DNA from: Olleya namhaensis | GTDB taxonomy: Bacteria; Bacteroidota; Bacteroidia; Flavobacteriales; Flavobacteriaceae | Reading direction: 5' to 3' | Length of the DNA stretch: 64,000 nucleotides | Assembly: GCF_900114005.1 (NCBI RefSeq) | Contig: NZ_FORM01000001.1 | Span: forward strand, 372,001 to 436,000 | Shown here: piece by piece, positions 41,667 through 49,649 of the stretch | Layout of the letters: each line of letters opens with the position of its first letter | Position numbering within the stretch: the stretch's first letter is position 1 | Position numbers and translations under genes: made by a program | The notes under the pieces: model-generated | Seen by the model: the letters and a program-made list of their open reading frames with translations, nothing else | Told to the model about the DNA's origin: nothing | Database searches by the model: none

Positions 41667-42578
41667 ATGCTGACAGTTAAAAATCTTACCTTTTCTTATA
41701 ATAAAACACCTGTTTTAAAAGACCTTTCTTTTACTGCTAAACAAGGTGAAAACGTAGCCATTATCGGAGAAAGTGGCTCAGGAAAAAGCACACTATTAAA
41801 TCTTATTTTTGGCGAATCCGACTTAAATCAAGGTCAGATTTTTTGGAAGGATGAACAAGTTTTGGGACCAAAATATAATTTAGTTGTAGGTTACGACTTT
41901 ATGAAATACGTAAGTCAAGAATTTGACTTAATGCCTTTTATAACCGTTGAAGAAAACATTGGTAAACACCTTTCTAATTTTTTTCCAGAAGAAAAAAAAG
42001 AACGTACTGCAGAGTTACTAGAAGTTGTAGAACTTACTGAACTTGCTAAAACAAAAGTAAAAACCTTAAGTGGTGGTCAAAAACAGCGTGTAGCATTAGC
42101 ACGTGCATTGGCAAAACAGCCAGAAATTATTTTATTAGACGAGCCTTTTAGTCATATTGATAACTTCCAAAAACAATCACTTAGACGTAATGTCTTTAGA
42201 TATTTAAAAGATAAAAACATTACATGTGTTGTTGCAACACATGACAGAGAAGATGTTTTAGGTTTTGCAGACAGAATGATTGTTTTGTACGACAACAAAA
42301 TTGTTGTTAATGATAGTCCAGAAAATTTATTTAAAAATCCAGAAGCACCATTAATAGCTTCGTTTTTTGGCGAGTTTAATATTATTGGTGATGCTATAAT
42401 ATACGCACATCAATTAAAAATGGTAACCAATTCTGAGCTTAAAGCTACAGTAATACACGCTTATTTTAAAGGACACTATTACTTAATTGAAGCCTTATTA
42501 GATGATGATGTTGTGTTTTTTGAGAGTAAAACAAACTTAGAAAAAAATACTACTCAGTATTTAGAAATCATAAGATAG
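41667..42578 (+). CDS. ABC transporter ATP-binding protein
   Basis: 303 aa ATPase subunit. Walker A GESGSGKST (about 36-44), signature LSGGQKQRVALARAL (about 138-152), Walker B IILLDEPFSHID and the H-loop ATHDRED are all intact. The C-terminal 80 residues form an extra domain. No permease gene is adjacent, so its partner and substrate are unknown. The gene overlaps the convergent phosphopantetheinyl transferase gene by 11 bases; its relation to the polyketide cluster is uncertain. Confidence 0.92.
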   Translation: MLTVKNLTFSYNKTPVLKDLSFTAKQGENVAIIGESGSGKSTLLNLIFGESDLNQGQIFWKDEQVLGPKYNLVVGYDFMKYVSQEFDLMPFITVEENIGKHLSNFFPEEKKERTAELLEVVELTELAKTKVKTLSGGQKQRVALARALAKQPEIILLDEPFSHIDNFQKQSLRRNVFRYLKDKNITCVVATHDREDVLGFADRMIVLYDNKIVVNDSPENLFKNPEAPLIASFFGEFNIIGDAIIYAHQLKMVTNSELKATVIHAYFKGHYYLIEALLDDDVVFFESKTNLEKNTTQYLEIIR

Positions 42579-43125
42579 CATAACCACTAAAAGCACCATG
42601 ATGTGTCAACGAAAAAGAGACATCTAACAAGTCACTGTTATGCTGTAGTTTAGGCACACCAATATTGTTTTTAATAATAGTTACTTCATCTAAATTTAAA
42701 GTTTTTAAAAAGCTCCTTTTTAGGCATTTACTCTGTGCGTCATAGTCTTGACTATGATCTAAAAACCATTCACTTTTATAACTTTTACCAGACGCTATTA
42801 ACGCAATAGAATAAATAAAATCTTCAGTAATTATAGACTCTATAAAATAACGATTGTCTTCAATAATTACCTCTCCTTTTAAATTAGAAAGTAAAGTACA
42901 TTCCAAACGTTTTGGATTAAAAAACCGTGTTCCAAACTGTTGTACATTTACTTTATACGCAGCTTCTTTCATGCTCCAAAGTAGCCAAACCATTTGGTCT
43001 TGATCTTTAGCAGACCAAATTAATTGCTGCTCTCTTGGCGTAAAAATTTTATCTAAAAAACGTGGACGTTTCCAATTACTATCTTTAGCAGCTTGTTTTA
43101 AATCGACAATATCATTGCCTATCAT
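42568..43125 (-). CDS. 4'-phosphopantetheinyl transferase (cluster carrier-protein activator)
   Basis: 185 aa AcpS/Sfp-superfamily enzyme that moves phosphopantetheine from CoA to a carrier-protein serine. The metal-binding motif GNDIVDL is at residues 3-9 and the second motif WSMKEAAYKV at about 50-59. It overlaps the upstream acyl carrier protein gene by 4 bases (start codon inside the acp stop), so that ACP is its probable substrate. It ends the minus-strand lipid/polyketide cluster. Confidence 0.9.
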   Translation of the reverse strand: MIGNDIVDLKQAAKDSNWKRPRFLDKIFTPREQQLIWSAKDQDQMVWLLWSMKEAAYKVNVQQFGTRFFNPKRLECTLLSNLKGEVIIEDNRYFIESIITEDFIYSIALIASGKSYKSEWFLDHSQDYDAQSKCLKRSFLKTLNLDEVTIIKNNIGVPKLQHNSDLLDVSFSLTHHGAFSGYAIL

Positions 43126-43376
43126 TTTGCTGCTAATTTTTCGTTTACAATATCCATTGCTGCTTTTACAGACGTCATTTTTTCCATGTCGTCGTTTTCT
43201 ATTCTAATATCAAATTCGTCTTCTACATCCAGAATAACATCTACTAAATTTGCTGAATTTATTTTAAGATCATTAATAAAATCAGTCGCTTCAGATAAAT
43301 TATTAAAAGCGTCTTCGTTTTGAATATAAGGTTGTACAATAGTTTTTAGTTTCGAGATAAGTTCTTCTTTAGTCAT
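43122..43376 (-). CDS. Dedicated acyl carrier protein
   Basis: 84 aa with the four-helix ACP pattern. The phosphopantetheine site is Ser41 in LKINSANLVDVILDVEDEFD; the usual Asp-Ser-Leu is replaced by Asn-Ser-Ala, so it is not the housekeeping AcpP. It lies between the ketosynthase (3-base gap) and the phosphopantetheinyl transferase (4-base overlap). It should carry the acyl chain built by the cluster enzymes. Confidence 0.92.
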   Translation of the reverse strand: MTKEELISKLKTIVQPYIQNEDAFNNLSEATDFINDLKINSANLVDVILDVEDEFDIRIENDDMEKMTSVKAAMDIVNEKLAAK

Positions 43377-43379
43377 AGT

Positions 43380-44651
43380 CTAATTATATTTTTTAAAAAT
43401 CACACAACCATTAACATCACCAAAACCAAAACTGGCTTTTGCTGCAATATTAAGGCTTGTATTAATAGTATGTTTTACAATTTTTTCTTCAGAAATTAGT
43501 GCAGATATTTTAGGGTGCAGGTCCTCGCAATTAATATTAGGAAACACAAATTGGTGTTTTAACTGCAATACAGTAGCTACACTTTCTATACTACCCGAAG
43601 CTGCCAAACAATGACCAACCATGGATTTTAAAGAATTTATATACGGAAAACCCGTTCCGCTTCTACCTAATGCTGTTGTCCAATTTTCGATTTCCAAACT
43701 GTCTTTTGAAGTCGCTGTTAAATGCCCATTTATAGTGTCAATATCTTCGGCTAAAATGCCCGAATCTTTAACCGCATCTTGTATGCAACGTTGCACAGCT
43801 TTAGCATTTGGAGCGGTCATTGTCCCTCCATCACGTTGTCCTCCAGAGTTTATATTTCCGCCTAAAATTTCAGCATAAATAGTCGCCTTTCTTTTTAAAG
43901 CACTTTCTAAAGACTCTAAAACTAAAGCGCCTGCTCCTGCGCCTGGCACAAAACCACTTGCTGTTTCACTCATTGGTCTAGAGCCTTCTTTTGGAGTTTC
44001 ATTATGCTTATATGTCATCACTCGCATAGCGTCAAATCCTCCCCAAATATAAGGTCCGTCGTCACTACAACTACCAACCAACATTCGTTTTGCTTGTCCG
44101 TTTTTAATACGATCATAACCCATTAAAATAGCTTCTGTACCTGTGGTACATGCAGATGAGTTTGTCGTTACTTGGTTACCTAAACCCAAAATTCCACCTA
44201 AAAAAGCACTAATTCCACTAGCCATAGTCTGTACCACAACTGTACTTCCTAATCGCTTTACCTGCTTGTCATCCAACTTATAAATAGCCTCTCTAAACTT
44301 GTCTACTCCTGAGGTTCCTGTTCCAAAAACAGTACCGGAATCAAAGTCTAAATCACTATCAGGATCAACTTCAAACCCAGCATCTTTCCAAGCGTCCATT
44401 CCTGCAATACAACCATATAAAATACCAGAACTATTAAAGCCTCTTAATTGTAAAGGTGTTAAGTATTCTAACTTTTTTTCTTCGGAAATATTAGGAATTC
44501 CACCAATACAACACGAAAAATTTAAATCTGCTAATTGTTGATGAAAAGTAATTCCGGATACACCATTTTTTATAGCCTTAGTAAATGCGTCGACACCTAC
44601 TCCATTTGGTGCAACGACTCCTAAACCTGTTATTACGACTCTGTTTTTCAT
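43380..44651 (-). CDS. Beta-ketoacyl-ACP synthase (FabF-like, cluster-specific)
   Basis: 423 aa thiolase-fold condensing enzyme. The catalytic triad is intact: Cys in NSSACTTGTEAI (about 168), His in TINGHLTATSKDSLEIENW and His in KSMVGHCLAASGSIE. The INGH sequence, where FabF usually has NAHGTST, marks a diverged clade. No separate chain-length factor is present. Genes on both sides (dehydratase, ACP) point to elongation of a special acyl chain. The gap before it contains a short palindromic repeat. Confidence 0.92.
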   Translation of the reverse strand: MKNRVVITGLGVVAPNGVGVDAFTKAIKNGVSGITFHQQLADLNFSCCIGGIPNISEEKKLEYLTPLQLRGFNSSGILYGCIAGMDAWKDAGFEVDPDSDLDFDSGTVFGTGTSGVDKFREAIYKLDDKQVKRLGSTVVVQTMASGISAFLGGILGLGNQVTTNSSACTTGTEAILMGYDRIKNGQAKRMLVGSCSDDGPYIWGGFDAMRVMTYKHNETPKEGSRPMSETASGFVPGAGAGALVLESLESALKRKATIYAEILGGNINSGGQRDGGTMTAPNAKAVQRCIQDAVKDSGILAEDIDTINGHLTATSKDSLEIENWTTALGRSGTGFPYINSLKSMVGHCLAASGSIESVATVLQLKHQFVFPNINCEDLHPKISALISEEKIVKHTINTSLNIAAKASFGFGDVNGCVIFKKYN

Positions 44652-44669
44652 ACTTTATTAATTAAAATA

Positions 44670-44693
44670 CACCTCGACAAACTCAGTTTGATC
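44670..44693. repeat. Short palindromic REP-like element, copy A
   Basis: CACCTCGACAAACTCAGTTTGAT resembles the better-preserved copy at 46641-46666 in the same orientation. It fills the gap between the dehydratase and ketosynthase genes. Confidence 0.45.
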
Positions 44694-44711
44694 TATCGTT
44701 TACAATTGGTA

Positions 44712-45152
44712 TTATTCTGCTTTCAGCATTCCTGAGATCTGTCCTCTACAAACCAATTCATTTTTCTGATTAAACATTTTTACTTTACATTTCAATTTAT
44801 TGAAACGAAAGACTTCTTTTTCTGAAACTACAGTCACTGTTTCGCCTGGAAAAACAGGTAAAAAGAAATCTACTTGACTTGACGTTAAAGCTATTTGAGG
44901 TTTATTATCTTTTGAAATTTCCTCCTTCAACATATAAATACCCAAACATACTACACCTATTTGCGCCATACATTCCGTTAAGATCACGCCTGGCGTAATT
45001 GGATTGTCTTTAAAATGTCCTTTGTAAAAATACTCGTCTTTTTTAAAAGTATAACTTCCCGTTACGCCTTCATTGGAAATCGTAGTTAAAATATCAACAA
45101 ACAAAAAAGGTTGCTGATAAGGTAATAATTTAATAATCTCGTTGTTATTCAA
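44712..45152 (-). CDS. 3-hydroxyacyl-ACP dehydratase (FabZ-like hotdog protein)
   Basis: 146 aa hotdog-fold enzyme. LLPYQQPFLFVD at residues 9-20 corresponds to FabZ LLPHRYPFLLVD, and the catalytic pair is preserved: His46 (YKGHFKDNP) and Glu60 (LTECMAQ). It should dehydrate 3-hydroxyacyl-ACP to the enoyl form in the cluster pathway, between the ketosynthase and the FabI-like reductase. The transposase gene separates it from the upstream half of the cluster. Confidence 0.88.
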   Translation of the reverse strand: MNNNEIIKLLPYQQPFLFVDILTTISNEGVTGSYTFKKDEYFYKGHFKDNPITPGVILTECMAQIGVVCLGIYMLKEEISKDNKPQIALTSSQVDFFLPVFPGETVTVVSEKEVFRFNKLKCKVKMFNQKNELVCRGQISGMLKAE

Positions 45153-45173
45153 TTGTTAATTAGGTTTTATTAG

Positions 45174-45202
45174 ACCTCACAGGTTTTAAAAACCTGTGAG
45201 GT
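45174..45202. repeat. Perfect inverted repeat next to the REP-associated transposase
   Basis: Two perfect 14-base arms (ACCTCACAGGTTTT and its complement) surround a single A. It lies 17 bases past the transposase stop. There is no T-run on the minus strand, so a simple terminator is less likely than a REP-type hairpin or transposase recognition site. I recall similar ACCTCACAGGTTTT palindromes in many Bacteroidota genomes, which would need checking. Confidence 0.7.
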
Positions 45203-45219
45203 ATTTACGCTCTTTAATT

Positions 45220-45780
45220 TTATTCCAAGTAATACTCTTCTAAATTATTTGTTTTATGAGAACTATGTGTTTTAATAAAATTTAATCTGCTTTCAAATAA
45301 ACTTAAGACATAGATTCTATTCAATTTTGTTGATTTATTAGAAAGAACTACTTGATAGGATGAATACTTATATTGACTAAAATCTGCTACAAACCCGTGA
45401 TGAACAGGATTTAAATGCACATACAAAATCAAGTTTTTCAAATACGTTTCATCTTCAATTTTTTTTCTAGAAAATCGATCTTGAAATAGACTTCCTGTTC
45501 TATTGTACTTTTTATTTATACTCTTTGAATATGCATTAAACAAATTTGAAAAGGCTTGTGAAATTTCTTTTGACTTAATATTTTCTTTCGTTTTTACAAC
45601 AAAGTGAAAATGGTTTTTCAATAAGCAATAAGATAGCACGCTACAGACGGAAGTAATATGTTTTTTCATTAACTGAAGAAAATAATTATAATTCCTCTCT
45701 TCAATAAAAAGGTCTTCTTTATTATTACCCCGATTGTAAATGTGGTAATATGTGTCTTCTAAAAGCGGTTCATATTTCAT
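45220..45780 (-). CDS. REP-associated tyrosine transposase (RAYT, Y1_Tnp/IS200-like)
   Basis: 186 aa HUH endonuclease-like protein. It begins YYHIYNRGNNKEDLF, as RAYTs do. The metal-binding HUH motif is HFH in LKNHFHFVVK (about 72-80), and the catalytic Tyr is probably in LILYVHLNPVHHG (about 135). RAYTs are domesticated single-copy transposases linked to dispersal of REP palindromes. It interrupts the polyketide cluster between reductase and dehydratase and is followed by a perfect palindrome. Nothing suggests that it is broken. Confidence 0.88.
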   Translation of the reverse strand: MKYEPLLEDTYYHIYNRGNNKEDLFIEERNYNYFLQLMKKHITSVCSVLSYCLLKNHFHFVVKTKENIKSKEISQAFSNLFNAYSKSINKKYNRTGSLFQDRFSRKKIEDETYLKNLILYVHLNPVHHGFVADFSQYKYSSYQVVLSNKSTKLNRIYVLSLFESRLNFIKTHSSHKTNNLEEYYLE

Positions 45781-45819
45781 ATTATATTTTCTTTTCTTAT
45801 AATGGTAAGCCCTTTTATT

Positions 45820-46617
45820 CTAGCTCAAACTCTCTCCTCCATCTACTTTTATAATTGTTCCATTGATCCAGCTAGCTTCATCTTTAGATAACAAATACAC
45901 TGCATTTGCAACATCTTCCGGTAATGTTAATCTGTTAAATGGATTACGAAATAAACTGTGTTCTTTAATTTTATCACTTCCAGGAATCATACGTAAAGAC
46001 GCTGTATCTGTTACTCCTGCTTGGATGCAATTGGCTCTGATACCATAAGGCGCAAACTCTAAAGCAATATTTCTAGTAATGGCTTCTAATGTTACTTTTG
46101 CTGCAGAAACTGCTGCGTAATTTTTCCATGCTTTTGTATTGCCTTCACTTGTAAAACTTATGATTCTTGAATCCTCTGCGAACAATTCGTCTTCAAAAAC
46201 AGCTTTAGCCCAATCAAACAAGCTAATAGCCATAGCGTTTATTGTTAAATTGAAATCGTCAGTTTTAAGTGTTGGTTTTTGGTCATCCAACATTGGTTTT
46301 AAATTGCCTTTAGCAACACTGTGTACTAATGTTCTTATTTTTCCTTCTGAGCCTAAAATTACTTTTAATTCAGAAATAATTTGCGTTCTTTTTTCTTGCT
46401 TAAAAGCATCAACATTAAACGATTTAAACTGTACTCCTTCTGCTTTTATTGTATCAAAATTGCTGTTAATTTCGGCTTCCTGAGTTCTTGAATTTCTGTG
46501 AATAATACAAATATTCATACCATGTTTAGCTAGCTTTTTTGCAGTAGCTAAACCTAATCCGCTTGAACCTCCTAAAATGAGTGCCCAATAGTTTTTATGC
46601 TGAAAATCTTTTGTCAT
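45820..46617 (-). CDS. SDR-family reductase, FabI-like (probable enoyl-ACP reductase)
   Basis: 265 aa Rossmann-fold oxidoreductase. The cofactor loop is ILGGSSGLGLA (about 15-25). The catalytic pair lies in NYAAVSAAKVTLEAI (Tyr about 165, Lys about 172): Tyr-X6-Lys spacing, as in FabI/FabL enoyl reductases, rather than the Tyr-X3-Lys of ordinary ketoreductases. The end WINGTIIKVDGGESL is typical of both. It likely reduces the enoyl-ACP made by the dehydratase. If so, a ketoreductase must come from elsewhere (perhaps FabG). Confidence 0.85.
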   Translation of the reverse strand: MTKDFQHKNYWALILGGSSGLGLATAKKLAKHGMNICIIHRNSRTQEAEINSNFDTIKAEGVQFKSFNVDAFKQEKRTQIISELKVILGSEGKIRTLVHSVAKGNLKPMLDDQKPTLKTDDFNLTINAMAISLFDWAKAVFEDELFAEDSRIISFTSEGNTKAWKNYAAVSAAKVTLEAITRNIALEFAPYGIRANCIQAGVTDTASLRMIPGSDKIKEHSLFRNPFNRLTLPEDVANAVYLLSKDEASWINGTIIKVDGGESLS

Positions 46618-46640
46618 AAATAGTAAATCTTGTTTTATCA

Positions 46641-46666
46641 GACACTTCGACTGCGCTCAGTGTGAC
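46641..46666. repeat. Short palindromic REP-like element, copy B
   Basis: GACACTTCGACTGCGCTCAGTGTGAC: ACACT pairs with AGTGT around the loop. It is GC-rich in an AT-rich gap between the type III PKS and reductase genes. I recognise this motif from recollection as a common dispersed element in Flavobacteriaceae. Confidence 0.6.
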
Positions 46667-46699
46667 GTTAAATTTTAAAATATTTTGATAACATTAAAA

Positions 46700-46724
46700 A
46701 GCTTAGACAAATTGAGCATGACAT
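46700..46724. repeat. Short REP-like element, copy C (degenerate)
   Basis: AGCTTAGACAAATTGAGCATGACAT follows copy B by about 35 bases in the same orientation and keeps the CTTNGAC...NTNAGNNTGAC outline. Confidence 0.35.
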
Positions 46725-46748
46725 AGCAATTACCATTTGCCTTTATAA

Positions 46749-47801
46749 TTACCATTCTAATAATATACGTTGTGCTGAAAAACCAGGTCCAAAACTCAAC
46801 ATTAATCCTCTATCGCCTTTTGGCAATGGTCTATCCATAAAGCGTTCTAAAACATACAAAACAGTTGCGCTACTCATGTTTCCGTAAAGTCGCAAGACTT
46901 CTTTTGTGTCGTCTATATTCTTACCTAAAGATCCAAATAAATCTTCTACAGTTTGCACTATTTTTTTCCCTCCTGGATGAAAAATAAGATGATCAATATC
47001 ATCAATTGTAATGTTATTGCGTTCTAAAAACGGATGGACAATCATAGGAAAATGTTCTGAAATGGTTTCAGGAACAGTCTTATCTAAAATCATTTGTAAC
47101 CCTGTGTTTACCAATTTAAAACCCATCATGGTTGTGGCATCATAAAAATGATACATGGCTTCATCTACTATTTTTGGTCCTACTTCATCTTCATAAGACG
47201 ATAAAATAACACTTGCCGCACCATCACCAAAAATGGCGGCACTTACTATATTAACCATTGAAAAATCATCTAGCTGAAAAGTTGCTGTTGGCGACTCAAC
47301 CGCAATGACAACTGCACGTTTATTAGGGTTTGCTTTTAGGAAATTCTTGGCGTAAATAATACCTGAAACACCTGCTGCACATCCCATTTCCGTAACAGGT
47401 AACCTAACAATATCCTGCTTCATCTTTAGATTATTTATCAAATAAGCATCTACAGAAGGAATCATAATACCTGTGCAACTTACTGTAATTATATAATCAA
47501 TATCAGTTGGTTTTAGCGCTGCTTTATCTAATGCTTTTACCAAAGATTGCTCTGCTAATTTTACTACTTCACGAGCGTAAATATCATTTTTTTCTTGAAA
47601 AGATGTATTTGTAAAAACTTCTTCTGCATCCATTATAGAGTAGCGCTTGTCAACACCTGCGCCTTCAAAAAGTTTGATAACTTTACGCTGAAAACGGTCG
47701 TCTTGACCAGTCATCCAAAGTTTTAAAAAAGGAATAATATCCTTAGTTTCTCTAGTGTACTTTGGAAGTTGTTTGGCTACTGCTGTTATTTTTACGCTCA
47801 T
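46749..47801 (-). CDS. Type III polyketide synthase (chalcone-synthase-like)
   Basis: 350 aa homodimeric condensing enzyme that extends acyl starters with malonyl-CoA and cyclises the product, commonly to alkylresorcinols, alkylpyrones or related phenols. The Cys-His-Asn triad is intact: Cys in VTEMGCAAGVSG (about 140), His in LIFHPGGKKIVQ (about 275) and Asn in LRLYGNMSSATVLYVLE (about 307). The ending SFGPGFSAQRILLEW is typical. The methyltransferase gene stops one base before this start. Adjacent fatty-acid-type enzymes suggest a long or modified acyl starter. Confidence 0.93.
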   Translation of the reverse strand: MSVKITAVAKQLPKYTRETKDIIPFLKLWMTGQDDRFQRKVIKLFEGAGVDKRYSIMDAEEVFTNTSFQEKNDIYAREVVKLAEQSLVKALDKAALKPTDIDYIITVSCTGIMIPSVDAYLINNLKMKQDIVRLPVTEMGCAAGVSGIIYAKNFLKANPNKRAVVIAVESPTATFQLDDFSMVNIVSAAIFGDGAASVILSSYEDEVGPKIVDEAMYHFYDATTMMGFKLVNTGLQMILDKTVPETISEHFPMIVHPFLERNNITIDDIDHLIFHPGGKKIVQTVEDLFGSLGKNIDDTKEVLRLYGNMSSATVLYVLERFMDRPLPKGDRGLMLSFGPGFSAQRILLEW

Positions 47802-47802
47802 A

Positions 47803-48516
47803 TTATTGTTGCTTCAAAATCCATTGAAAACGAAACGCCCACTTCCATTGGATTTGATAATTTGCATTTATTTGTTCTGAAATAGTTGTCAACTCTTCTC
47901 TTTTGAATCCTCTTAAAACAGAGGTTAGTCCATCTTCCACTATTGTTTTATTCTTGATAGTTGTACATAAAAGTTTAAACAGATAATAGGCTAATTTATG
48001 TCTGTGTAAATCATTAACCACTATACCTAATTTTGCTTTTTGCAACACAGGTTTTAAAAACGAAACCAATTGATCTTCTTTAAAATGATGCAAAAATAAA
48101 GTGGTTAATACTAAGTCGTACTCTAAGTTATTGAACTGATCTGAAAATATATCTATTGCTTCAAAACTTACGTTATCGTATTTTTGCGATAATGAATTAG
48201 CGTAATTAACTGTATGAGGGTTTGCATCAATCCCTATTAGTTTAAAATTATAGTCGTTTTTCTTTCCAAAAAGTGATATTTCTCTTAATATATCTCCCCC
48301 TCCACACCCCAAATCAATGATTGTTATAGCTTCTGATTTATTATGGTTTTTAAGTGCTTTTTTTAAGCCATTAATAGTCACAATGTTTCCGCCTAACCAT
48401 TGATTAATTTTGGCCAATTTATCTAATGCATCATGAAGTATTGGACCATTATAATCCAAATCGTCCATTATTTCTTCTGCTTCACTTCTATATTTTGTAT
48501 TTACTAAAACACTCAT
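47803..48516 (-). CDS. SAM-dependent methyltransferase (cluster tailoring)
   Basis: 237 aa class I methyltransferase. The SAM motif IIDLGCGGGDILREI is at about 66-80, and the acidic-loop motif LIGIDANPHTVNYA follows. The substrate is inferred: in a type III PKS operon the natural target is the phenolic or quinone product, by O- or C-methylation. It overlaps the flavoprotein gene by 4 bases (ATGA) and is one base from the type III PKS gene, so all three are translated from one mRNA. Confidence 0.9.
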   Translation of the reverse strand: MSVLVNTKYRSEAEEIMDDLDYNGPILHDALDKLAKINQWLGGNIVTINGLKKALKNHNKSEAITIIDLGCGGGDILREISLFGKKNDYNFKLIGIDANPHTVNYANSLSQKYDNVSFEAIDIFSDQFNNLEYDLVLTTLFLHHFKEDQLVSFLKPVLQKAKLGIVVNDLHRHKLAYYLFKLLCTTIKNKTIVEDGLTSVLRGFKREELTTISEQINANYQIQWKWAFRFQWILKQQ

Positions 48517-49649
48517 TTAATTGTCATTGTTTTACCATGTGTACGCTTAATAATTTGTGGCAAAATACTTGGTATTATTTTTACGATACGTATTAAAACC
48601 TCAGCCAATTTGTTGTAACTAAATAGCTTTGCTACAATATGACCTGTTGTTAATCGCGATTTAAACTCGGTATTCCATTCTCTAAGATACTGTTTTTCTA
48701 ATCCTTCTCTGTCCTTTATTGCACCATTAAAAAATTGAATAATTAATAGTGATGCCATTTGTGCACTGCGTATTGCCATGCTCATTCCGTTACCACATAA
48801 AGGGTGAATCATTCCTGCAGTATCGCCACACATTAACATATGGTTTTCTATAGGGTTTTTGGTTTCGAAAGAAATCTGACTAATAGTTAAAGGCGTTTCA
48901 AAAACTGAAGTTGTGTTTTCAAATACTGATTTTAAAGCGGTATTTTTATAAAGCACTTTTCGCTGAAACTCGTTAATATCTTTATACTTTTTAAAAGCCT
49001 CAAAATTGGTAATGTAGCATACATTTATACTATCGTCTTCTACTTTTGAGATACCACAATAACCACCTTCAAAATTATGAAGCGCCACTAAGTTTTCAGG
49101 AAAAACGCCTTTTAAATGTGTTTTAACTGCTAAAAAAGGGGATTTGTTTTTAATGAAATTACGATTGAGCTTAACATCCAAATTAGCACGTTTGCCATAA
49201 GCACCAATCACAATTTTTGAAGTATACTTATTTGATTTAGTTTCAACCGAAAACACATCATTAGCAAACGTTACATTTTCTACTGTATCTTGAGTAATGG
49301 TAGCCTGATTTGCTAATGCAACTTTTGCCAATTGGTTATCTAAACAATAGCGACTAATACCAAAACCACCAAGAGGCAAATTGGCCTTTACAAGCTTGTT
49401 TTTAGGTGTAGATAGTTCAAATTTATCAATCCTTTTTGCGCCTAGTTTAAAAACGTCTACTCCCAGAAAGTTTAAATAAGGTAAGACTTCGTTAGAAATA
49501 TACTCGCCACAAACCTTATGTTTTGGATACTCGTTTTTTTCGATAACCAAAACACTATGCTTATTTTTTGATAAATGGATGGCACTACTAAGACCTGCTA
49601 ATCCTCCACCAATAATAATAACATCAAAATTTGAGGGAATTATATTCAA
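48513..49649 (-). CDS. FAD-dependent oxidoreductase (geranylgeranyl-reductase/hydroxylase-like)
   Basis: 378 aa flavoprotein of the p-hydroxybenzoate hydroxylase fold. The dinucleotide motif VIIIGGGLAGLSSAIHLSKN is at about 9-28, and the second FAD motif MCGDTAGMIHPLCGNGMSMA is at about 275-294. Members either hydroxylate aromatic rings or reduce isoprenoid chains. It is probably the first gene of the cluster mRNA and overlaps the methyltransferase gene by ATGA. In Streptomyces griseus srsABC, a type III PKS works with a methyltransferase and a flavoprotein hydroxylase, so ring hydroxylation is my preferred guess. Confidence 0.88.
   Translation of the reverse strand: MNIIPSNFDVIIIGGGLAGLSSAIHLSKNKHSVLVIEKNEYPKHKVCGEYISNEVLPYLNFLGVDVFKLGAKRIDKFELSTPKNKLVKANLPLGGFGISRYCLDNQLAKVALANQATITQDTVENVTFANDVFSVETKSNKYTSKIVIGAYGKRANLDVKLNRNFIKNKSPFLAVKTHLKGVFPENLVALHNFEGGYCGISKVEDDSINVCYITNFEAFKKYKDINEFQRKVLYKNTALKSVFENTTSVFETPLTISQISFETKNPIENHMLMCGDTAGMIHPLCGNGMSMAIRSAQMASLLIIQFFNGAIKDREGLEKQYLREWNTEFKSRLTTGHIVAKLFSYNKLAEVLIRIVKIIPSILPQIIKRTHGKTMTIK

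What the first reader, a model, noticed from the sequence alone, without database searches (positions are those of the whole stretch)
42568..49649. Uncharacterised type III polyketide/fatty-acid hybrid cluster
Seen: nine minus-strand genes in one direction: FAD oxidoreductase, methyltransferase, type III PKS, FabI-like SDR, REP-associated transposase, FabZ-like dehydratase, FabF-like ketosynthase, ACP with an atypical NSA site, and a phosphopantetheinyl transferase. The first three overlap or are one base apart, and the last three overlap or are 3 bases apart. Catalytic residues are intact in PKS, KS, dehydratase and SDR. Known: Streptomyces srsABC couples a type III PKS, methyltransferase and flavoprotein to make methylated phenolic lipids. 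Inference: a private FAS module with its own ACP and activator makes an unusual acyl chain that the PKS turns into a methylated, oxidised phenolic, pyrone or quinone lipid. No ketoreductase is encoded, so one is borrowed or the chain is not fully processed.
Basis: partly seen in the sequence, partly recalled or inferred. Interest (0 to 1): 0.8.

Follow-up and report, generated by a model that had tools for sequence, protein, structure and literature searches.

The report
Private fatty-acid kit feeding polyketide enzyme
A unit of up to eight neighbouring genes, found in about a third of the sampled genera of one bacterial family, joins a type III polyketide synthase to its own second set of fatty-acid-making genes, and is predicted to make an unusual methylated, oxidised lipid whose structure is not yet known.

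Summary
Window 42568-49649 (-) carries FAD enzyme, methyltransferase (MT), type III PKS, SDR, dehydratase (DH), ketosynthase (KS), ACP and PPTase, with a transposase between SDR and DH. Two genomes keep DH-KS-ACP together elsewhere in the genome. The genome has a separate FabF, ACP and LpxC-FabZ-like protein, so this is a second set. New findings: (1) the private ACP reads I-N-S-A, not D-S-L, in 55 of 57 rows. (2) This PKS clade has Phe at residue 228 (66 of 66), where 17 of 17 unlinked PKSs fetched from the phylum sample have the Trp that literature links to resorcinol formation. (3) The cassette also occurs without this PKS in 5 of 395 phylum genomes, twice beside flexirubin/dialkylresorcinol genes. 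Best reading: a portable acyl-ACP supplier, here predicted to load a re-tooled type III PKS. Product, hand-over and physiology are untested. The trio FAD/MT/type III PKS is known; ten searches of the held papers showed no FAS-linked version.

The parts
48513..49649 (-). FAD-dependent oxidoreductase (hydroxylase/halogenase/GGR fold superfamily); start codon uncertain (TTG)
   Evidence: model pLDDT 89, nearest solved folds flavin halogenases and hydroxylases; next to the PKS in 62 of 62 family loci
47803..48516 (-). SAM methyltransferase (PRK06202-like, under that model's cut-off)
   Evidence: 62 of 62 family loci
46749..47801 (-). type III polyketide synthase, FAS-linked clade, F228 in place of Trp
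45820..46617 (-). SDR with Y-x6-K, predicted enoyl reductase; optional
44712..45152 (-). FabZ-like dehydratase; start codon uncertain (TTG)
43380..44651 (-). FabF/FabB-like ketosynthase with NGHLTAT motif; the only such gene in the unit
43122..43376 (-). private acyl carrier protein, attachment serine in I-N-S-A
42568..43125 (-). 4'-phosphopantetheinyl transferase; optional, homologues (E 1e-5) found only in PKS-positive genomes of the family sample
45220..45780 (-). REP-associated tyrosine transposase (RAYT); passenger, not part of the pathway
   Evidence: NCBIfam score 65.7 under the cut-off of 80, Pfam Y1_Tnp over its cut-off
45175..45201 (.). palindrome CCTCACAGGTTTTNAAAACCTGTGAGG beside the RAYT gene; passenger

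Best explanation
The window encodes a conserved unit that pairs a type III PKS, a methyltransferase and a flavoenzyme with a second, private type II FAS set, and the private set is predicted to build an acyl chain on its own ACP that is likely passed straight to the PKS, which would extend and cyclise it before the methyltransferase and flavoenzyme would finish it. Shown: the genes, their intact catalytic residues, their coupling across genomes, and that they duplicate a FabF, ACP and FabZ-like set elsewhere in the genome. Inferred: the PPTase arms the N-S-A ACP; KS, DH and, where present, the SDR elongate and dehydrate/reduce the chain, borrowing FabG, FabD and FabH; the ACP-bound chain (not a CoA ester) is the PKS starter; the product is a methylated, hydroxylated or quinoid alkyl-resorcinol or alkyl-pyrone lipid. 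The cassette is a portable acyl-ACP supplier, since its orthologues also sit beside DarB/DarG/DarH in two other genomes. Genomes without the SDR would make a less reduced chain or use the host enoyl reductase.
For: Co-occurrence: PKS 63 and KS 62 of 199 family genomes, all 62 KS genomes PKS-positive. Synteny in 62 family loci: FAD 62, MT 62, DH 59, KS 58, ACP 58, SDR 54, PPT 18, in different flanking contexts (45, 12 and 5 loci). In G144 and G190 the block DH-KS-ACP lies elsewhere in the genome, still together. Second FAS copy: the other FabF is 31% identical to the private KS, and the other ACP has ADSLD. PPTase homologues in 20 of 199 genomes, all PKS-positive. Distances of PKS and KS correlate (r 0.74, 0 of 999 permutations as high). 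FAS-linked PKS is one side of a branch at 100/99, with F228 in 66 of 66 rows against W in 17 of 17 fetched unlinked ones. The cassette lies beside DarB (635 and 615 bits, cut-off 550), DarG and DarH in L249 and L250. Precedent: acyl-ACP use by germicidin synthase and by ArsB/ArsC (passages of PMC6274091).
Against: No protein interaction, transcript or product was examined. The KS has relatives next to GNAT-like and glycosyltransferase genes in three genomes, so its product need not become a phenolic lipid. Two loci keep FAD-MT-PKS-SDR without KS and ACP nearby: L053 (21 kb, genome not searched for them) and L163 of G138, where a DH match lies about 9 kb off at the contig end and no KS was found in a 99% complete genome. 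No FabH, FabD or FabG is in the unit. Related genomes share ancestry, so co-occurrence counts are not independent. Mantel r for PKS-ACP is only 0.49. The nearest solved relatives of the PKS (Pks11 and others) are CoA users as far as I recall.
Confidence: 0.6

Rival explanations
1. The two halves serve one product but not by ACP hand-over: the PKS takes a CoA starter, and the FAS cassette makes a second acyl chain that is joined to the PKS product later (as the aryl-polyene acid is esterified to the resorcinol in flexirubins).
For: Flexirubin joins a polyene acid made by type II FAS-like genes to a dialkylresorcinol (PMC3992019 passages); the cassette sits beside flexirubin genes in L249 and L250.
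Against: No ligase or acyltransferase is among the eight kept genes; gene order places the PKS between tailoring genes and the cassette.
Confidence: 0.2
2. The unit makes an ordinary srs/hierridin-type alkylresorcinol, and the extra FAS genes only raise or adjust chain supply with no new chemistry.
For: The FAD/MT/type III PKS trio matches HidA/HidB/HidC and the planctomycete operon in make-up (PMC10896814 passages; PMC8086630 passages).
Against: Trp to Phe at 228, Cys to Pro at 171 and Leu to Ala at 173 are fixed or nearly fixed in this clade, and the PKS is far from the three trio PKSs seen elsewhere in the phylum (28-31% identity, L227, L229, L230).
Confidence: 0.15
3. The FAS half and the PKS half are unrelated neighbours.
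For: The cassette exists without this PKS in 5 of 395 phylum genomes.
Against: 62 of 62 family KS genomes are PKS-positive, with kept order in different flanks, and the cassette is retained after relocation.
Confidence: 0.05

Closest known systems
Hierridin operon HidA/HidB/HidC and the planctomycete MT-oxidoreductase-type III PKS operon (PMC8086630, PMC10896814; passages seen)
   Same: Methyltransferase, oxidoreductase and type III PKS in one operon
   Different: No FAS cassette, private ACP or PPTase described in the passages seen; those operons are mostly ordered MT-oxidoreductase-PKS, this one oxidoreductase-MT-PKS
Azotobacter ars operon (ArsA, ArsB, ArsC; passages of PMC6274091 and PMC5916927)
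   Same: A dedicated FAS of the same operon loads type III PKSs from its ACP
   Different: There the FAS is type I with a fused ACP domain; here the parts are separate type II proteins, and MT and FAD enzymes are present
Germicidin synthase Gcs (passages of PMC6274091)
   Same: Type III PKS able to take an acyl-ACP starter
   Different: Passages report acyl-ACP use only; private FAS genes beside Gcs were not looked for
Flexirubin/dialkylresorcinol genes DarB/DarG/DarH (NCBIfam hits; PMC3992019 passages)
   Same: An orthologous SDR-DH-KS-ACP-PPT cassette lies divergently beside them in L249 and L250
   Different: DarB is a KAS III-type enzyme, not a type III PKS of the chalcone synthase family
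Streptomyces srs cluster and the M. smegmatis polyketide quinone cluster (mentioned in passages of PMC5916927; gene make-up partly recalled)
   Same: Type III PKS with methylation and oxidation of a phenolic lipid
   Different: No private FAS set recalled; SrsA, PKS10 and PKS11 are reported to carry the Trp that is Phe here

Membership tests
Type III PKS (chalcone synthase superfamily) | Cys-His-Asn triad and fold | tested here: met
   C141/H275/N308 in 66 of 66 rows; Pfam over cut-off; best fold match Pks11, TM 0.90
srs/hierridin-type resorcinol lipid operon | MT and flavoprotein genes adjacent to the type III PKS | tested here: met
   62 of 62 family loci; homology to SrsB/SrsC or HidA/HidB themselves not tested
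srs/Pks11-type alkylresorcinol synthase | Trp at the ArsB-W281 position (literature, PMC5916927 and PMC6274091 passages) | tested here: not met
   Phe in 66 of 66 rows; CylI, solved with a resorcinol product, aligns Leu there, so the residue alone does not exclude resorcinol
Azotobacter ars-type FAS-to-type III PKS system | Type I multidomain FAS in the operon | tested here: not met
   only separate type II proteins
Azotobacter ars-type FAS-to-type III PKS system | Direct transfer from ACP to the PKS | not testable with these tools
   needs enzymology
Flexirubin/DAR biosynthesis | DarB-type KAS III over its family cut-off | tested here: not met
   among the families listed for the nine ORFs of the window unit, only the PKS touches the DarB model, at 29.9 bits against a cut-off of 550; other window ORFs were not scanned
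Primary FAS | Only FabF/ACP/FabZ set of the genome | tested here: not met
   separate FabF, ACP and a 472-residue frame with a FabA-like domain elsewhere in the genome
Enoyl-ACP reductase (FabI/FabL type) | Y-x6-K active site (motif recalled) | tested here: met
   56 of 56 SDR rows; activity untested, and the score to the FabL model is under its cut-off

The most novel reading that the evidence does not exclude
A portable type II FAS cassette with an orthogonal ACP (INSA site) plugs into different lipid-finishing machines of Bacteroidota (type III PKS, DarB resorcinol makers, GNAT/glycosyltransferase pairs), and in Flavobacteriaceae it has driven the evolution of an obligately ACP-fed type III PKS clade with a re-shaped active site that makes a new, widespread class of ring lipids.
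Probability: 0.4. Interest if true: 0.8.

Novelty: new variant of a known kind. Interest (0 to 1): 0.62.

Why it matters
Genome surveys count type III PKS clusters as about a tenth of predicted clusters in Flavobacteriaceae (10.74% in PMC10734526, 9% in PMC7440613; passages seen), and the passages I saw name no product. This report gives the unit its boundaries, shows that a private FAS set goes with it, and names a switch residue and an ACP signature that make the function testable. If the hand-over is real, it would be a type II counterpart of the Azotobacter type I FAS to type III PKS hand-over, with a natural series of genomes with and without the reductase for structure comparison.

Tried and rejected
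Rejected: that the halves are chance neighbours. Rejected: that the transposase belongs to the pathway (6 of 80 named loci). Rejected as unproven: calling the product a resorcinol from the srs analogy, and calling the FAD enzyme a halogenase from its fold rank alone (hydroxylases and reductases score close by). Considered: that the flanking E1 dehydrogenase, lipocalin-like and OmpA genes (one or more in 45 of 62 loci) belong to the unit; not adopted, because 17 of 62 loci lack them. Led nowhere: KS against plasmids, no match at E 1e-50; protein searches for the PKS and the ACP listed only near relatives, the best 120 of thousands. Dropped or limited rows: unlinked PKSs were examined in 17 loci fetched from the 140 phylum genomes that have only a more distant match; 3 of the 17 were missed by the first ORF script and recovered. 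Two further distant matches from the family search are not in the 17: L155 has Tyr at the position and L156 is a doubtful type III PKS. Each gene alignment uses the best single ORF piece per locus, so loci with broken frames give partial rows, and rows under a score limit are absent. The KS tree used 30 of 62 PKS-linked rows. The bootstrap of the PKS tree had not settled and long branches meet there. Literature absence rests on searches of an open-licence library only, mostly seen as listings.
Full report
What is there. ORF listing and family scans confirm nine minus-strand ORFs in 42568-49649: FAD enzyme, methyltransferase, type III PKS, SDR, REP-associated transposase, FabZ-like dehydratase, FabF/FabB-like ketosynthase, ACP and PPTase. 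The closest named database relatives are Olleya and Lacinutrix; the same-genus genome G171 has a contig of the length (3,005,012) given for the Olleya sp. YS hit, so the window is most likely an Olleya genome (inference).

Is it more than chance? In 199 family genomes (198 genera), the PKS search gave 63 genomes with an orthologue (56-100% identity; G150 in two pieces), followed by a gap to other condensing enzymes (next hit 31%). The KS search at E 1e-60 gave 62 genomes, all within those 63; only G138 has PKS without KS. The Fisher p (2.5e-51) ignores shared ancestry and is only a guide. Around the 62 PKS loci other than the window, tblastn found FAD 62, MT 62, DH 59, KS 58, ACP 58, SDR 54 and PPT 18. 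Of the four loci without KS, L158 is a 6.3-kb contig whose genome has the KS on another contig; L163 is G138, where a DH match lies at the contig end about 9 kb beyond the SDR, so an insertion and an assembly gap are possible; L122 and L132 have DH-KS-ACP together elsewhere in the genome. The last two genomes are neighbours in the PKS tree (92/80), so this may be one event. In 80 named genome contigs, MT is found in 80, FAD 79, DH 77, KS 74, ACP 73, PPT 71 and SDR 60 (five of the six without KS are contigs of 3.9-11.3 kb, the sixth is L053).

Edges of the unit. Upstream of the FAD gene lie E1 dehydrogenase, lipocalin-like or OmpA genes in 45 of 62 loci, DAO/GreA/MtgA-like genes as in the window in 12, and neither in 5. 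The kept unit is therefore FAD to ACP, with PPTase when present. The PPTase search found homologues in 20 of 199 genomes at E 1e-5, and all 20 are PKS-positive.

A second, private FAS. The genome has a FabF and ACP pair about 50 kb away on the same contig, a 472-residue frame with a FabA-like domain (the size of an LpxC-FabZ fusion), and one further PPTase over the cut-off. The private KS is 31% identical to that FabF, and the two ACPs match over 51 residues at 37%. The other ACP has ADSLD; the private ACP has N and S in 57 of 57 rows and A in 55 (S in 2). The private KS has NGHLTAT around the first His, the other FabF NTHGTST. That this makes the ACP orthogonal is inference.

The SDR. Y-x6-K is kept in 56 of 56 rows, and the best solved relative is an NADPH enoyl-ACP reductase (3oic). 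It is missing near the PKS in 8 of 62 family loci and 20 of 80 named loci. Whole-genome search of the eight family genomes found no orthologue: five had nothing at E 1e-20, and three had only 29-31% relatives, no closer than the window genome's own second SDR (30%). A 61-residue piece remains in L150. So the reductase step is dispensable in some genomes, and the product may vary in saturation (inference).

The PKS has changed. Across 395 phylum genomes, 173 have a match at E 1e-25. Only 33 are orthologues (66% identity or more): 30 in the family, and G275, G328 and G437 outside. These three carry FAD, MT, DH, KS, ACP and PPTase beside the PKS, with an SDR orthologue in G437 alone. The FAS-linked PKSs form one side of a branch at 100/99 in an 80-row tree, with many long branches and an unsettled bootstrap. 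Phe228 is present in 66 of 66 linked rows, and the MGF string that holds it in 80 of 80 named loci. Trp stands there in 17 of 17 unlinked PKSs fetched from the phylum sample; one more distant family PKS, L155, has Tyr. Pro171 (Cys in others) and Ala173 (Leu in others) are further clade-specific residues against the 14 unlinked rows. Pks11 carries W at the aligned place, and the literature ties this Trp to resorcinol formation (PMC5916927 passages). Against over-reading: CylI, solved with a resorcinol product, aligns Leu there. The matching position in chalcone synthase (G256) is recalled, not tested.

The cassette on its own. A KS search of the same 395 genomes found 38 at E 1e-60: the 33 PKS orthologue genomes and five others. 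In G294 and G576 the order SDR-DH-KS-ACP-PPT recurs, divergent from genes that score over the cut-off as DarB (635 and 615 bits, cut-off 550), DarG (198 and 191, cut-off 170) and DarH (454 and 443, cut-off 300); the neighbouring 300-residue gene, in the place where DarA would be expected, matched no family in either. Both ACPs read KINSANLVD. In G272, G242 and G319, DH-KS-ACP (with SDR in G272) lies beside GNAT-like and family-2 glycosyltransferase-like genes (the GNAT-like gene was scanned in L251 and L253 only). Here the ACP motif is not kept: INSMH in L251 and LDSFY in L252 and L253. The KS tree puts these five and 30 sampled PKS-linked rows together against FabF (100/99; PKS-linked group 84/97). 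Flexirubin genes are known to include type II FAS-like sets for the polyene (PMC3992019 passages); whether this cassette beside dar genes is already described there I could not see, as supplements were not open.

How it likely works. See Best explanation. Shown: genes, residues, coupling. Inferred: activation of the ACP, chain building with borrowed FabG/FabD/FabH, direct loading of the PKS, ring closure, methylation, oxidation. The FAD enzyme model (pLDDT 89) matches flavin halogenases and hydroxylases best, GGR reductases close behind, so its chemistry is open.

Novelty. The trio is known. FAS hand-over to type III PKS is known for a type I FAS. Survey and strain papers count Flavobacteriaceae type III PKS clusters without describing this make-up in the passages I saw. 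In ten searches of the open library I met no description of a type II FAS-linked type III PKS unit in Bacteroidota; subscription papers are mostly missing from that library.

Noticed in passing
window 45175-45780: A RAYT transposase gene beside a 27-base palindrome sits between SDR and DH. RAYT homologues at 62-73% identity lie in the same PKS/SDR-to-DH gap in L062, L071, L080, L083, L094, L105 and L164, with the palindrome on both sides in L083 and L105.
   Followed up: partly
window 46643-46658: GAGCGCAGTCGAAGTG, a stretch that looks REP-like (label recalled), lies in the PKS-SDR gap; the only hit in the window.
   Followed up: no
L113-L154 and L168-L176, upstream of the FAD gene: Fused E1 dehydrogenase, a lipocalin-like protein (no Pfam hit) and an OmpA/glycine-zipper protein lie in the same direction upstream of the unit in many genera (one or more in 45 of 62 loci); a lipid carrier role is possible but untested.
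   Followed up: partly
L251-L253: The DH-KS-ACP cassette lies beside GNAT-like and family-2 glycosyltransferase-like genes, perhaps a separate glycolipid pathway.
   Followed up: partly
L154, L039, L042, L149: Relatives with split FAD, PKS, MT or KS frames, possible decay or sequencing errors.
   Followed up: no
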